Origin: Verrucomicrobiaceae bacterium
Lineage (GTDB): Bacteria; Verrucomicrobiota; Verrucomicrobiia; Verrucomicrobiales; Verrucomicrobiaceae
Assembly: GCA_016795365.1 (NCBI GenBank)
Contig: JAEUHN010000022.1
Location: forward strand, 1-64,000
DNA length: 64,000 nt
Direction of reading: 5' to 3'
In this document: positions 49,130 through 54,153 of the stretch, piece by piece
Layout of the letters: each line of letters starts with the position of its first letter
Numbering within the stretch: the first letter of the stretch is position 1
Position numbers and translations under genes: made by a program
The notes under the pieces: generated by a model
Databases searched by the model: none
The model's input: the letters and a program-made list of their open reading frames with translations, nothing else
Told to the model about the DNA's origin: nothing

Positions 49130-50350
49130 ATGCCTGATTTCTACCAGCACGCGCGCCTGCCGACGTTGCATCACCTCGCCGACAGCGACGTGATGGCGCG
49201 CGAGGCAGAGCTGGCGGAGTGGAGCAAGAACAAGGCGATTGTGCTCCTGCTCCCGGCTTTGTATTCCGAGTTCAACGCCACCGCACTCCCGCGTATGATG
49301 CGTGAGATTTCGGGCGTGCCGTATGTGAGCGAAGTGGTGCTCACCGTGAACCAGGCGAGCGCGGAGCAGATCGACAAGGCGCGTTCCCAGGTCGCTCATC
49401 TGCTGGGCGACAAACCTTTCACCCTGCTCTGGAACGATGGCCCTGCGCTCCAGGACGTGCATCGTCAGCTCGAGGCCCGTGGTCTGCCCGACTTCCGGCA
49501 CGGTAAAGGGTCCAATATCTGGATGGGCGTGGCGCATCTCAAAGCGCGCGGCACACCGCTCACCGTCGCCAGTCACGACACCGACATCCTCAGCTACGAG
49601 CGCGGTATGTTGTGGCGTCTCTGCTACCCCGTCGCGCATCCCGACATGCCTTACCAGTTCGCTAAAGGTTACTACGGACGCGTGGGCGAACGCCTCTATG
49701 GACGCATGACGCGGCTCATGATTTTCCCGCTCATCCAGGCCTTCATCTCCGTGATGGGCAACAGCCCGCTACTCGATCATCTGGAAGGTTTTCGCTATCC
49801 GCTCAGCGGTGAGTTTTGTGCCGACCTCGATGCCCTCAGCGCCGTCTCCATGCCGTCTGGCTGGGGCTTGGAAGTCTGCCTGCTCAGCGAGATGTTCCGC
49901 ACGCTCAAACCCGAGCGCATGTGTCAGGTGGATCTCGGCTCCAACTTCGAGCACCGCCATCGCACCGTCTCCAACACACCCGCTACTGCCGCTGCGGCCG
50001 AAGGCTTGATCGACTCCGCGATCGAGGTCAGCCGCACCCTTGCCAATCACCTTCTCCGCGAAAAGAAGGTCACCACCACCATCCTCGATCAGGTCCAGCA
50101 GCGCTACGTCGAGCTGGCCAATCAATGGGTGCCCCGCTACCAGCATGACGCCATGCTCAATGGCCTCCGCTACGATGTGGAAGACGAGCAGAACGCCGTG
50201 CAGGTCTTCGTCGAGGCTCTTCGCCAAGCTTTCGGCAGCAATGGCCAAAGCGTCCACGCCCTCCAGTGCGTCGAGCGCCCCGCCTGTGGTCCGATCATCG
50301 ACCAAGATCCCGCTCTGCGTGAGGCTCTGGTCGCTGCGGCGATTCGCTAA
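49130..50350 (+). CDS. Glycosyltransferase, glucosyl-3-phosphoglycerate synthase-like (GT81)
   Basis: A 406-residue GT-A enzyme. Features are VVLTVNQASAEQ (nucleotide-binding strand), HGKGSNIWMGVAHL, the metal-binding HDTDI, and the conserved FAKGYYGRVGERLYGRMT followed by YPLSGEFCADLDAL and GWGLEVCLLSEMF. These match GpgS/MpgS-type enzymes that make glucosyl- or mannosyl-3-phosphoglycerate, a compatible solute or polysaccharide precursor. The sugar donor is not readable. A GpgP phosphatase is not seen nearby. Its start is 65 bp after pssA. Confidence 0.8.
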   Translation: MPDFYQHARLPTLHHLADSDVMAREAELAEWSKNKAIVLLLPALYSEFNATALPRMMREISGVPYVSEVVLTVNQASAEQIDKARSQVAHLLGDKPFTLLWNDGPALQDVHRQLEARGLPDFRHGKGSNIWMGVAHLKARGTPLTVASHDTDILSYERGMLWRLCYPVAHPDMPYQFAKGYYGRVGERLYGRMTRLMIFPLIQAFISVMGNSPLLDHLEGFRYPLSGEFCADLDALSAVSMPSGWGLEVCLLSEMFRTLKPERMCQVDLGSNFEHRHRTVSNTPATAAAAEGLIDSAIEVSRTLANHLLREKKVTTTILDQVQQRYVELANQWVPRYQHDAMLNGLRYDVEDEQNAVQVFVEALRQAFGSNGQSVHALQCVERPACGPIIDQDPALREALVAAAIR

Positions 50351-50472: not shown

Positions 50473-50642
50473 GTTGGCGGATGCGGGCGAGATCAATAGC
50501 CGCATCGGGCGCGGTGTCAAACTACGGGTGCGCTCCGGTGGCTGGAAGTGATTCGTGAGCGCAGGACGACGATGCAGGGTCTGCGAGTTCAAATCATCAC
50601 TCGTCGCGTGAATACGTGGCGGGCGGAATCCGTCGATGCGCC

Positions 50643-51566
50643 ATGCCCTTGCCCTCCTATTCACCTGTTCGGTTGGATGCTGCTCCGGTTTATGTGATCA
50701 GCAGCACCCCTGGGAAAAGCTTGACGAGATCTGCGCCCAGGGTGCCGCGTAAGCCGCAGGGGATCGCAGCGGCGGGGCGAGATTCGTCGTCTTCGATGGC
50801 CACGGGATTGTCTGCAGCCACAGTGGCGCTTGTTTTGGTGGTCGTGTTTGTGGTGTGGAAGTGGCAGCAGGCCAGCACGGCGGCCGAAGCGGAGCATCGT
50901 CGGGCGGAGATTTCCTGGGCCTTCGCCGATGAGGTGCTACGCGATCTGAACGGATTGCGGAATGATGCCAGCCGGCTCGACGCCGAGCGCAAGGCCTTGC
51001 TGAAAGCCCTCGATCAGGCCCAGCGGAATGGAATTGCTCTCGAAGCGGATCTCACCGTCTGGCAGCGCACGCATCAGCAGTTGCAAAACGAATCCACCCA
51101 GGCTCTCACACAGTGGTCCAGCTACAGTGAAAAGCTTCAGCAATCCCTCGGCAGCACGCAAAACCAGCTCCAGCAGACCAGCACGGTGCTCGAACAGGAA
51201 AGGCAGACGGCAGCCCAGAGCATCGCGCAGCTGGACTCTGAGAAGAACGCGATCGCTGAACAGAAGGCCGCCGTGGAACGCGAGGCTGATGCCCTCGATC
51301 GGAAGGCGCGCGATCTGAGCAGTGAGAACAGCTCCTTGCACAACGACAACGCCTCCCTGCGCAGCGATCTCAGCAGTGCGCGCAGCAGTGTCAGTTCGCT
51401 CGAAAGCCGCAACGCCCAGTTGTGCAGCGAGATCAACTGCCTCAACGGCACCATCAGTTCCCTGCACAGCCGCATCAGTTGTCTCGAGAGCGAGTTGAGT
51501 CGCGCTCGTTCCGATAGCAGCAATAGCAATGGTGGAGACGGCGAGCATCATCGGGGACGTCGCTGA
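50643..51566 (+). CDS. Membrane-anchored coiled-coil protein
   Basis: A 307-residue protein with a basic cytoplasmic N-terminus, one transmembrane helix (TVALVLVVVFVVWKW, about residues 59-73) and a long extracytoplasmic coiled coil (about 75-290) rich in Gln, Ser, Glu and Leu (for example NSSLHNDNASLRSDLSSAR, SRISCLESELSRARS). Cys residues recur near the C-terminus (C258, C263 region), and the tail is Ser/Asn/Gly-rich. There is no enzyme motif. Probably structural or a spacer in the envelope. The ATG at 50643 was chosen; an earlier in-frame start adds nine residues. The following MalQ-like gene starts 82 bp downstream. Confidence 0.75.
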   Translation: MPLPSYSPVRLDAAPVYVISSTPGKSLTRSAPRVPRKPQGIAAAGRDSSSSMATGLSAATVALVLVVVFVVWKWQQASTAAEAEHRRAEISWAFADEVLRDLNGLRNDASRLDAERKALLKALDQAQRNGIALEADLTVWQRTHQQLQNESTQALTQWSSYSEKLQQSLGSTQNQLQQTSTVLEQERQTAAQSIAQLDSEKNAIAEQKAAVEREADALDRKARDLSSENSSLHNDNASLRSDLSSARSSVSSLESRNAQLCSEINCLNGTISSLHSRISCLESELSRARSDSSNSNGGDGEHHRGRR

Positions 51567-51648
51567 GACCGGGGCAAATCTTGGGGCTTTCATCCTTCAG
51601 CATTCCCCTTTGACCCTCGCGCATTTCTCGAAACCATGCGCACTCTCC

Positions 51649-52539
51649 ATGACCGACCTCTCCCGCACCAGCGGCATCGTGCTGCATCCCGCCTCTCTGC
51701 CGGGACGCTTTGGCGTGGGTGAATTTGGCCCCGAGGCCCATCGCTGGCTTGAGTGTCTCTCGCGCATGGGACAGTCCATCTGGCATCTCAACGTGGCGGA
51801 CTCCGCCTTTCCTGTTCAGATCGGCAGCGCCGGAAATCCCCTGCTGCTTAGCTTCGATGCGTTGCGCAATGATGGAGTCCTGCAGCCTTCCGATCTCGCC
51901 ATGCTGCCGGCTTTCAATGATGAGCGAATCGATGCGGCTCCGGTGATCGAAGTGCGCACAGCCTTCCTTCGACTCGCCGCTCGTCGATTCCTTGGCCAGG
52001 CCAATGCCAGCCCGCTGCTGCATCATGCATTTGAGCGCTTCTGCGAAGCGGCCGTGCAGTGGCTTGATGACCATGCCCTGAGTGCTGCGCTCAAGACGGC
52101 GGCGGACCTCGAAGAATGGCAAGGCTCGTGCGATCTCTCCACGATGGATGCCGACACGATCACTCGCCTGCGTGACGAGTTCAGCCATGAGATCGACGAG
52201 CAGAAGGCGCTCCAGTTCTTGTTCTTCCGGCAATGGCATCGCCTTCGTGCCAGCGCGCACGATCTGGGCATTCGAGTGCTCGTGGATGCTGATGATGCCA
52301 CGCATCGGATCGGCGATGTGGTGGAGGGTCGCGATCAAATGATCACCATGGAAGCATCTGCTGGGTGGACTGGCATTGAGGCCGCCTGGCACTCTGAATC
52401 TTCCATCGTGCTCTGCCCAGCGCAGGCGATGTTTGAGAACATCACGCCCGCATCTGGCTGGAGGTTTACGTGGGAGCAGTTCACGCCCGAGAAGCAGCTT
52501 CGACTGCGCACGCTCACCGCGAAGACGGGAAGACTGTAA
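51649..52539 (+). CDS. 4-alpha-glucanotransferase (GH77) remnant lacking the catalytic core
   Basis: A 296-residue protein starting TDLSRTSGIVLHPASLPGRFGVGE, the hallmark of MalQ, then RMGQSIWHL and SAGNPLLLSFDAL. It continues through the helical part to FFRQWHRLRASAHDLGIRVLVDAD. Normal MalQ (about 500 residues) then has the nucleophile Asp, GEDLG and HDND motifs. These are missing, and the sequence passes to a short tail (ASGWRFTWEQFTPEKQLRLRTL) that resembles the MalQ C-terminus. The frame is intact, so it looks like an internally deleted pseudoenzyme rather than a frameshifted pseudogene. A binding or regulatory role is possible. A longer frame begins at 51529, but its N-terminus is not MalQ-like. 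Confidence 0.75.
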   Translation: MTDLSRTSGIVLHPASLPGRFGVGEFGPEAHRWLECLSRMGQSIWHLNVADSAFPVQIGSAGNPLLLSFDALRNDGVLQPSDLAMLPAFNDERIDAAPVIEVRTAFLRLAARRFLGQANASPLLHHAFERFCEAAVQWLDDHALSAALKTAADLEEWQGSCDLSTMDADTITRLRDEFSHEIDEQKALQFLFFRQWHRLRASAHDLGIRVLVDADDATHRIGDVVEGRDQMITMEASAGWTGIEAAWHSESSIVLCPAQAMFENITPASGWRFTWEQFTPEKQLRLRTLTAKTGRL

Positions 52540-52569
52540 GAACGAGCGCGTCGCGGATGTTGAAGCGCC

Positions 52570-54153
52570 ATGCTCGTTCGCCTCGCTCTCCTTTGTCTCG
52601 CCATCGTCTCCGTCGCCACTGCCGCCGACCGGCCAAACTTCGTCTTCATCCTCTGTGATGACCTGGGATATGGCGATGTGAAGTGCAACAACCCTGAGGG
52701 CAAGATCGCCACGCCACACATGGATGCGATCGCCGCTCGGGGCATGAGATTCACGGATGCGCATTCATCGTCCGCCGTGTGCAGCCCCACGCGCTACGGC
52801 GTGATGACTGGGCGCTACAACTGGCGCACAAAACTCCAGAGCGGCGTGCTCGGTGGTCTCAGTCCGCGCCTCATCGAGGAGGGGCGCATGACCGTTGCTG
52901 CGATGCTCAAGGCGCAGGGCTACAAGACGGCTGCCGTCGGCAAGTGGCACCTCGGCATGGACTGGGTGAAGCACGCAGGCAAGGATGTGGCCGAACTGAA
53001 CATCGAGGCCGCCAACCAGGTGAACAACGTGGACTTTACCAAGCCCGCCACGAACACGCCCACCGCCGTCGGCTTTGACTACTACTTCGGCATCAGTGCC
53101 AGCCTGGACATGGTGCCATACTGCTTCATCGAAAACGATCGCGTCACGGAGCTGCCAACCGCCACGATGTCGTTGCTCATGAACGCAACCCCCGGCAAGA
53201 ACGGCACCACACGCGAGGGTCCGGGCGTCCCAGGATTCAAAGGCGAAGACGTGCTGCCCACGTTGACGAAGAAAGCCATCGAAGTCATCGGCAAGCACGC
53301 CGCCGCGAAGGAGAACTTCTTCCTCTACCTGCCGCTGAACTCACCACACACGCCGATCCTTCCCAGCAAGGAATGGCAGGGCAAAAGCGGCATTAGCCTG
53401 TATGCGGACTTCGTGATGCAGACGGACGATGCCATCGGTCAGATCGTGAAGGCGCTCGAAGCGGGCGGCATAGGGGACAACACCGTGGTCGTCGTCACCA
53501 GCGACAATGGCTGCTCACCTAGCGCCGACTTCAAGCAGCTCGCCGAGCACGGTCACAACCCGAGCTATGTCTTCCGTGGCAACAAGGCGGACATCTTCGA
53601 CGGCGGCCATCGTGTGCCCTTCCTCGTCCAGTGGCCCGCGCAGGTGAAAGGCGGCACGACTTACGATCATCCGGTGTGCCTGCTCGACTTCATGGCCACC
53701 GCTGCCGACATCACCGGCACGAAGATTCCCGACAACGCCGCCGAAGACAGCGTGAGCTTCCTGCCCGCACTCAAGGGCAAAAACGAGCCCGTCCGCGAAG
53801 CAATCGTGCATCACTCGATCAATGGCTCGTTCTCGATTCGGCAGGCCAACTGGAAGCTCGAACTCTGCCCCGACTCCGGCGGCTGGAGCGATCCACGTCC
53901 CGGCGGTGGCGGCAAAGGGAAAGGCAAGGGCAAGAAAGGACCTGCCACACCAGCGCCCGCGCTCGCTCCCCTTCAGCTCTATGATTTGAGCCAGGACATT
54001 GGCGAGAAGACCAACGTGCAGGCCGAGCACCCTGAGATTGTCGAGCGCCTCAGCAAGCTCCTGGAGAAGTATGTCGCCGATGGCCGCAGCACTCCCGGCG
54101 CTCCTCAGAAAAACACCGTCGATCCCAATATCTGGAAGTATTCGCGGAAGTAG
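52570..54153 (+). CDS. Exported sulfatase (S1 family, arylsulfatase-like)
   Basis: A 527-residue secreted sulfatase. The signal peptide is LALLCLAIVSVATAAD. Metal-binding Asp are in FVFILCDDLGYGD. The formylglycine motif is C71-SPTR with GVMTGRYNWRT. GKWHLGMDW, SPHTPI and VTSDNGCS follow. C71 must be converted by a formylglycine-generating enzyme encoded elsewhere. It hydrolyses sulfate esters, probably of algal or animal polysaccharides. A Gly/Lys-rich insertion (GGGGKGKGKGKKGPATP) interrupts the C-terminal domain, as often seen in Verrucomicrobia sulfatases. Starts 30 bp after the MalQ-like gene and converges on a small membrane protein gene. Confidence 0.93.
   Translation: MLVRLALLCLAIVSVATAADRPNFVFILCDDLGYGDVKCNNPEGKIATPHMDAIAARGMRFTDAHSSSAVCSPTRYGVMTGRYNWRTKLQSGVLGGLSPRLIEEGRMTVAAMLKAQGYKTAAVGKWHLGMDWVKHAGKDVAELNIEAANQVNNVDFTKPATNTPTAVGFDYYFGISASLDMVPYCFIENDRVTELPTATMSLLMNATPGKNGTTREGPGVPGFKGEDVLPTLTKKAIEVIGKHAAAKENFFLYLPLNSPHTPILPSKEWQGKSGISLYADFVMQTDDAIGQIVKALEAGGIGDNTVVVVTSDNGCSPSADFKQLAEHGHNPSYVFRGNKADIFDGGHRVPFLVQWPAQVKGGTTYDHPVCLLDFMATAADITGTKIPDNAAEDSVSFLPALKGKNEPVREAIVHHSINGSFSIRQANWKLELCPDSGGWSDPRPGGGGKGKGKGKKGPATPAPALAPLQLYDLSQDIGEKTNVQAEHPEIVERLSKLLEKYVADGRSTPGAPQKNTVDPNIWKYSRK

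What the first reader, a model, noticed from the sequence alone, without database searches (positions are those of the whole stretch)
51649..52539. MalQ-derived protein with the catalytic core deleted in frame
It keeps the N-terminal ~240 residues and a C-terminal tail of GH77 but none of the catalytic motifs, in an intact 296-codon frame. A kept reading frame suggests a non-catalytic glucan-binding or regulatory role. It lies between a coiled-coil envelope protein and a sulfatase, downstream of a GT81-like gene.
Basis: partly seen in the sequence, partly recalled or inferred. Interest (0 to 1): 0.5.

Follow-up and report, generated by a model that had tools for sequence, protein, structure and literature searches.

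The report
Selected, catalytically dead half-MalQ protein
A sugar-enzyme gene in a Verrucomicrobiaceae bacterium has lost the half that does the chemistry, yet it is kept intact by strong natural selection in two related species, and a similar short gene sits in a related genus, so it is probably a repurposed non-enzyme protein and not a dying gene.

Summary
Window 51649-52539 encodes 296 aa: residues 1-213 match the N-terminal part of GH77 amylomaltase (MalQ), residues 214-296 its C-terminus. About 200 residues with the whole catalytic core are missing, and two substrate-contact loops outside it are damaged. It is the only GH77 hit in its genome. The same form occurs in a second species of the genus (96% identity); a 261-aa form is the only GH77 hit of a genome of a related genus. 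No other short form was seen in 386 order genomes or 387 phylum genomes (overlapping samples, capped listings). dN/dS between the two close species is 0.069, and 0.020 over residues 1-213, so it is not a decaying gene. AlphaFold predicts a compact protein with barrel strands 1, 2, 3 and 8, a contiguous half-barrel. In both genera the gene follows a coiled-coil gene (membrane coiled coil, or PspA). The three short-form genomes also show no full-score GlgP and carry a GT5-type glycogen synthase. A new variant of a known kind (pseudoenzyme).

The parts
51649..52539 (+). short GH77-derived gene, 296 aa, stop TAA included
   Evidence: same form in G001 and a 261-aa form in G003
51649..52287 (+). 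residues 1-213: GH77 barrel strands 1-3 with the helical insertion; the strongly constrained part
   Evidence: alignment; dN/dS 0.020; model strands 7-11, 44-47, 209-212
51784..51828 (+). residues 46-60: eroded remnant of the LPLGPTGYGxSPYQ loop, six residues deleted and most of the rest changed
52285..52290 (+). junction D213/A214, where about 200 residues holding the catalytic core are missing
52288..52536 (+). residues 214-296: remainder of the GH77 C-terminus with the WRFTW motif; gatepost loop deleted; less constrained (dN/dS 0.21)
51567..51648 (+). 82-bp leader, 77 of 82 bases identical in G001, no gaps; could be regulatory, or part of an N-terminal extension from ATG 51529
50616..51566 (+). 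upstream neighbour: hydrophobic N-terminal segment (read from the sequence) and long coiled coil, 316 aa
   Evidence: dN/dS 0.093; homologues in five other family genomes are not next to a GH77 gene
52570..54153 (+). downstream neighbour: sulfatase, 30 bp after the stop codon
   Evidence: same order in G001
49130..50350 (+). GpgS/GT81-like glucosyltransferase; in G001 about 1.8 kb from the coiled-coil gene

Best explanation
It is a pseudoenzyme derived from a MalQ-type GH77 amylomaltase. Probably in the common ancestor of two Verrucomicrobiaceae genera, an in-frame loss of barrel strands 4-7 removed the catalytic centre. The rest (strands 8-1-2-3 and the helical subdomain) still folds as a compact half-barrel and works by binding, not catalysis. 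I think it most likely a protein-protein adaptor for a membrane-associated coiled-coil partner encoded just upstream. Shown: GH77 origin, loss of catalytic residues, purifying selection, no other GH77 hit. Predicted: the fold. Inferred: a single origin (moderate support), the binding role and its partner.
For: Alignment with full-length relatives shows three losses, all of active-site material. Of 60 N-part columns conserved in at least 94% of 35 full-length rows, the window protein keeps 37 of 43 outside the platform loop but 4 of 17 inside it; the G003 form keeps 33 of 43 and 2 of 17. dN/dS is 0.069 for the gene and 0.020 for residues 1-213, against 0.034-0.134 for seven nearby genes; 14 or fewer nonsynonymous of 68 changes has P about 7e-21 under neutrality with an assumed 75% nonsynonymous share. 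The short forms are one clade in the GH77 tree, 93/85, and their hosts G000 and G003 are sisters among the 13 family genomes in the RpoB tree, 100/99. AlphaFold gives pLDDT 84.0, pTM 0.85 for the window form and 83.3, 0.83 for G003, with matching strands; 287 of 296 residues superpose on Thermus amylomaltase 2owc, Z 27.8, rmsd 2.5. In G003 the gene starts directly after the stop codon of a PspA gene; in G000 and G001 it follows a coiled-coil gene by 82 bp.
Against: The two upstream genes are not known to be homologous (PF04012 does not match the window's one), so the shared coiled-coil neighbour may be chance; I computed no background rate. The relative of the window's coiled-coil protein in G003 is on another contig. 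The G003 form is shorter and on a long branch (1.02), so its function may have shifted or weakened, and long-branch attraction could inflate the clade. G002, whose full-length MalQ sits close to the short forms in the GH77 tree, had no usable RpoB, so that the two genera are true sisters is not settled. The C-terminal part of the G003 form is no closer to the window form than to some full-length enzymes (scores 68.5 against 69.0). The folds were predicted with full-length relatives in the alignment, which favours a barrel-like answer. The dN/dS rests on one species pair. No expression data.
Confidence: 0.5

Rival explanations
1. A glucan-binding or glycogen-regulating pseudoenzyme: the remnant still binds alpha-glucan or a glycogen enzyme and tunes the replaced glycogen system of this lineage.
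For: All three short-form genomes have a GT5 GlgA (120-124 bits; the other 13 of 16 genomes searched have no hit above 33 bits) and no full-score GlgP was found in them, so glycogen metabolism differs in the same lineage. Non-catalytic regulators are known in starch metabolism (BAM9, PMC8774843; ISA1/ISA2, PMC12510319; both seen as search listing with start of abstract only). AGNP of the loop and the LHPxSLPG motif are kept in the window form.
Against: Platform tyrosine loop, gate region and gatepost loop are gone or broken; the G003 form also lost AGNP. The gene is not beside the GlgA or phosphorylase genes, which lie on contigs C30 and C46 of G000.
Confidence: 0.25
2. A decaying gene caught before its frame breaks.
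For: Catalytic core lost; the G003 form is shorter still and evolves fast (GH77 to RpoB distance ratio median 4.87 to full-length rows, against 2.41 for full-full pairs).
Against: dN/dS 0.069 and 56 of 68 changes at third codon positions; no stop inside the frame in 3 of 3 genomes. The window form's ratio is 3.10, inside the full-full range of 1.42-9.47.
Confidence: 0.05
3. A protein with a new small-ligand or catalytic activity in the half-barrel, different from amylomaltase.
For: Very strong constraint on residues 1-213; the LHPxSLPGRFGxGE motif is kept in all three short forms.
Against: Most of the motif is equally conserved in full-length enzymes, so it may be structural; I did not look systematically for a new conserved polar cluster.
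Confidence: 0.12
4. Selection acts on something else in the same DNA, such as the 429-aa antisense ORF 51475-52764 or an RNA, and the sense frame is a bystander.
For: The antisense frame is open, and the antisense reading whose third positions coincide with those of the sense frame gives dN/dS 0.12.
Against: The sense frame gives the lower value (0.069) and has GH77 relatives; the antisense value is what mirrored third positions produce. No RNA-family search was made.
Confidence: 0.03

Closest known systems
GH77 4-alpha-glucanotransferase / amylomaltase MalQ (Pfam PF02446; Thermus structures 1cwy, 2owc)
   Same: N-terminal 213 and C-terminal ~83 residues are homologous; the model superposes over 287 of 296 residues on 2owc, Z 27.8.
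   Different: No strands 4-7, no catalytic nucleophile, acid/base or transition-state stabiliser, broken substrate loops, 296 instead of about 510 aa.
rBAT, a GH13-like transporter subunit (7nf7, 6li9)
   Same: A clan-mate fold (Z 10.9-11.2 with our model) in a protein that works as a partner of a membrane protein; that rBAT is non-catalytic is recalled.
   Different: Keeps a full barrel (recalled); a eukaryotic ectodomain; different partner.
Non-catalytic starch regulators BAM9 and the non-catalytic functions of ISA1/ISA2 (PMC8774843, PMC12510319; listing only)
   Same: Carbohydrate-active enzyme relatives with a non-enzymatic role.
   Different: Plant proteins of other families. That they keep most of the parental domain is recalled.
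PspA/IM30 family (PF04012), the gene beside the G003 form
   Same: Directly precedes the short form in G003.
   Different: Not homologous to the short form; PF04012 not found in G000 or G001.

Membership tests
GH77 amylomaltase (active enzyme) | Match to the GH77 profile | tested here: met
   PF02446 111.3 bits, cut-off 25, but only positions 1-199 of 465
GH77 amylomaltase (active enzyme) | Passes a curated whole-enzyme cut-off of NCBIfam | tested here: not met
   best NF011080 167 bits against 477; TIGR00217 malQ 69.8 against 205.65
GH77 amylomaltase (active enzyme) | Catalytic Asp, Glu and Asp (ends of strands 4 and 5, and the stabiliser) | tested here: not met
   the columns are deleted; residue roles from PMC4705983 passages
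GH77 amylomaltase (active enzyme) | Platform tyrosine loop and gatepost loop | tested here: not met
   platform loop keeps 4 of 17 conserved columns; GLGSEARMNxPG loop deleted; assignment of these stretches to the named loops is inferred
GH77 amylomaltase (active enzyme) | Complete eight-stranded barrel | tested here: not met
   model has four strands of at least four residues, 7-11, 44-47, 209-212, 253-257, plus one short strand 231-233; prediction only
Pseudoenzyme of GH77 | Homologous fold with catalytic residues lost | tested here: met
   fold predicted, not solved
Pseudoenzyme of GH77 | Kept by purifying selection | tested here: met
   dN/dS 0.069, bootstrap 0.034-0.121; one species pair only
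Pseudoenzyme of GH77 | Non-catalytic function shown by experiment | not testable with these tools
   none

The most novel reading that the evidence does not exclude
A natural half-barrel: an internal deletion cut a (beta/alpha)8 glucanotransferase down to the contiguous strands 8-1-2-3, and the product became a stable, strongly selected new protein that docks to membrane coiled-coil or PspA-type proteins in two Verrucomicrobiaceae genera.
Probability: 0.3. Interest if true: 0.65.

Novelty: new variant of a known kind. Interest (0 to 1): 0.42.

Why it matters
Most pseudoenzymes differ from their parent by point changes in a whole domain (recalled). Here half of a TIM barrel is gone and the rest is still under strong selection, which gives a natural test of whether half-barrels can live alone as functional proteins. 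It also warns that annotation as 4-alpha-glucanotransferase would credit these bacteria with a reaction for which no other GH77 gene was found in them.

Tried and rejected
Decaying gene: rejected for the window genus by dN/dS. Assembly error: rejected; the same 296-aa form lies in another assembly, KLAP44. Another full MalQ elsewhere: none found in G000, G001 or G003 (G001 is 87% complete). More short forms: none seen in 386 order genomes (224 with a match, the place list was cut short so the weakest were not read), in 387 phylum genomes (97 with a match at E <= 1e-20; overlaps the order set) or in the genome-contig scan (30 loci, two of which, L052 and L062, are the G001 and G003 copies). Short frames were checked: G661 and G376 run off a contig end, G029 is full-length with one in-frame TAG, and L077 (321-aa frame) is a full-length gene split by a frame change; L073, L080 and L081 are cut by contig ends.

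Neighbour conservation as a clue to partner: weak. Homologues of the coiled-coil protein exist in 5 other family genomes of 67 searched, none with a GH77 gene in the 9-16 kb fetched around it. Promoter and terminator scan: 0 promoter-like and 1 terminator-like site, no more than in shuffles. Sequence proof of a single deletion from the C-terminal part of G003: not obtained.

Papers: searches for a truncated, inactive or pseudo GH77 and for natural half-barrels showed none describing this among the 20 of 160, 12 of 145, 10 of 38 and 12 of 39 papers listed; many subscription journals are not in the library, and no listed paper was opened.

Tree choices: of 58 GH77 rows, 12 were dropped before (five duplicates of other loci, L052-L055 and L062; fragments or broken L073, L077, L080, L081; L020 with a run of N; distant L078, L079). 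The RpoB tree held three outgroup rows read in a wrong frame; redid it with 15 of the 21 genomes searched (G001 had no match; G002 and G004 only partial; G071, G072, G090 dropped).

Full report
What is there. The ORF at 51649-52539 is intact and encodes 296 residues. Pfam finds only the first 199 of 465 GH77 positions (E 7.4e-32), and PDB amylomaltases match residues 3-213. Alignment with full-length MalQ of the same bacterial family shows that residues 1-213 follow MalQ from its start to the end of the strand that reads GIxIIGD in the relatives. The protein then jumps about 200 residues and continues with the last ~83 residues, which include the family's WRFTW segment. Two more losses lie outside the core: the LPLGPTGYGxSPYQ loop (six residues deleted, most others changed) and the GLGSEARMNxPG loop. 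In GH77 structures the nucleophile and acid/base sit at the ends of strands 4 and 5, and the -1 sugar stacks on a platform tyrosine, with a gate and a gatepost loop closing on the glucan (PMC4705983, passages read). All of this material is missing or broken here; matching the eroded stretches to those named loops is my inference.

Distribution. It is the only GH77 hit in its genome. In the bacterial family, 62 of 68 genomes have a GH77 match; the six without are all under 90% complete. Three of the 62 have only a short form: G000 (window), G001 (same genus, 96% identity; named KLAP44) and G003 (another genus, 261 aa; 'new MAG-17'). Of the other 59, 25 carry the related type of about 510 aa (45-52% identity to residues 1-213 or so), one of them (G004) interrupted by a run of N, and 34 only a longer, more distant GH77 type, in one (G050) split between two contigs. 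Searches of 386 genomes of the order and 387 of the phylum with a profile of the three short forms showed no further short form. Apparent short frames in G661, G376, G029 and L077 are contig ends or a broken full-length gene.

Selection. Between G000 and G001 there are 54 synonymous and 14 nonsynonymous changes: dS 0.307, dN 0.021, ratio 0.069 with bootstrap range 0.034-0.121. Residues 1-213 have ratio 0.020 and residues 214-296 0.21. Seven nearby genes range from 0.034 to 0.134. Changes by codon position are 9, 3 and 56. A decaying gene would not look like this. This is one species pair and a simple counting method.

History. A tree of 46 GH77 rows on 192 retained columns puts the three short forms in one clade, 93/85, next to the full-length genes of G002 and G008. 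Among the 13 family genomes in the RpoB tree, G000 and G003 are sisters at 100/99 with 89% identity. So one origin in the ancestor of two genera is the simplest reading. It is not proven: branches are long, G002 could not be placed by RpoB, and the C-terminal part of the G003 form does not resemble the window form more than it resembles some full-length enzymes.

Fold. AlphaFold, given 38 aligned rows of which 35 are full-length, predicts the window protein with pLDDT 84.0 and pTM 0.85. Its strands of four or more residues are 7-11, 44-47, 209-212 and 253-257; a further short strand is at 231-233. By position these are barrel strands 1, 2, 3 and 8, which are neighbours in a closed barrel, so what is left is a contiguous half. 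The G003 form has matching strands 7-9, 42-45, 198-201 and 225-227 (pLDDT 83.3). Foldseek's 33 hits at E <= 0.001 for the window model are all amylomaltases or plant D-enzymes; for the G003 model the 30 such hits are too. VIA-align superposes 287 of 296 window residues on Thermus amylomaltase 2owc at Z 27.8, rmsd 2.5. Full-length relatives in the alignment favour this answer. The rest of the N-part is conserved normally: of 43 family-conserved columns outside the platform loop the window protein keeps 37, inside the loop 4 of 17; the G003 form keeps 33 and 2.

Context. In G000 and G001 the order is coiled-coil protein, short GH77, sulfatase. In G003 the gene starts directly after the stop of a PspA/IM30 gene with different neighbours. 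The only shared theme is a coiled-coil partner upstream, which is suggestive but rests on two cases. Among 16 family genomes, a GlgP of full score, in one piece or in two, is present in 12 of the 13 with full-length MalQ (not in G019). None was found in G003; G000 and G001 have only a divergent 845-codon frame (74 bits), whose product in G000 belongs to the DUF3417 type. A GT5-type GlgA above 100 bits was found only in the three short-form genomes, with a branching-enzyme-like gene directly after it in G000 and a homologue of that gene in the same place in G003 (73% identity). So the lineage seems to have changed its glycogen system, which may explain why amylomaltase catalysis became dispensable.

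Mechanism. I commit to a non-catalytic binding protein, most likely an adaptor for a membrane-associated coiled-coil partner (about 0.5). A glucan-sensing or glycogen-regulating role is the main rival (about 0.25): it gains from the glycogen switch and loses from the missing substrate loops.

Novelty. Pseudoenzymes are a known kind (reviews PMC5106787 and PMC10211241, listing with start of abstract only). The papers listed include none on a half-barrel GH77 as far as titles and abstract starts show. I rate it a new variant of a known kind.

Noticed in passing
G000 contig C30 (locus L143:5556-13534) and L146:6679-10391 of G003: A GT5 GlgA followed by a branching-enzyme-like gene, present in the short-form genomes and not found at similar score in 13 relatives; in G000 a GDE-type debranching gene lies upstream, in G003 the GDE hit is on another contig. 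The lineage seems to have replaced its glycogen system.
   Followed up: partly
window 51567-51648: The leader before the short GH77 gene is 94% identical between species without gaps; it may be regulatory or belong to an N-terminal extension starting at 51529.
   Followed up: partly
L029:715-1485 and L029:1486-2271: A PspA gene and the G003 short GH77 gene abut with no bases between stop and start codon.
   Followed up: partly
L142:6399-8039 and L100:524-2238: In G008 and G002 the PspA gene lies directly after a gene for a ~300-aa protein with a hydrophobic N-terminal segment; the G008 one has no Pfam match.
   Followed up: no
window 51475-52764, minus strand: A 429-aa antisense ORF covers the whole short GH77 gene; best explained as a by-product of G+C-rich third codon positions.
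   Followed up: partly
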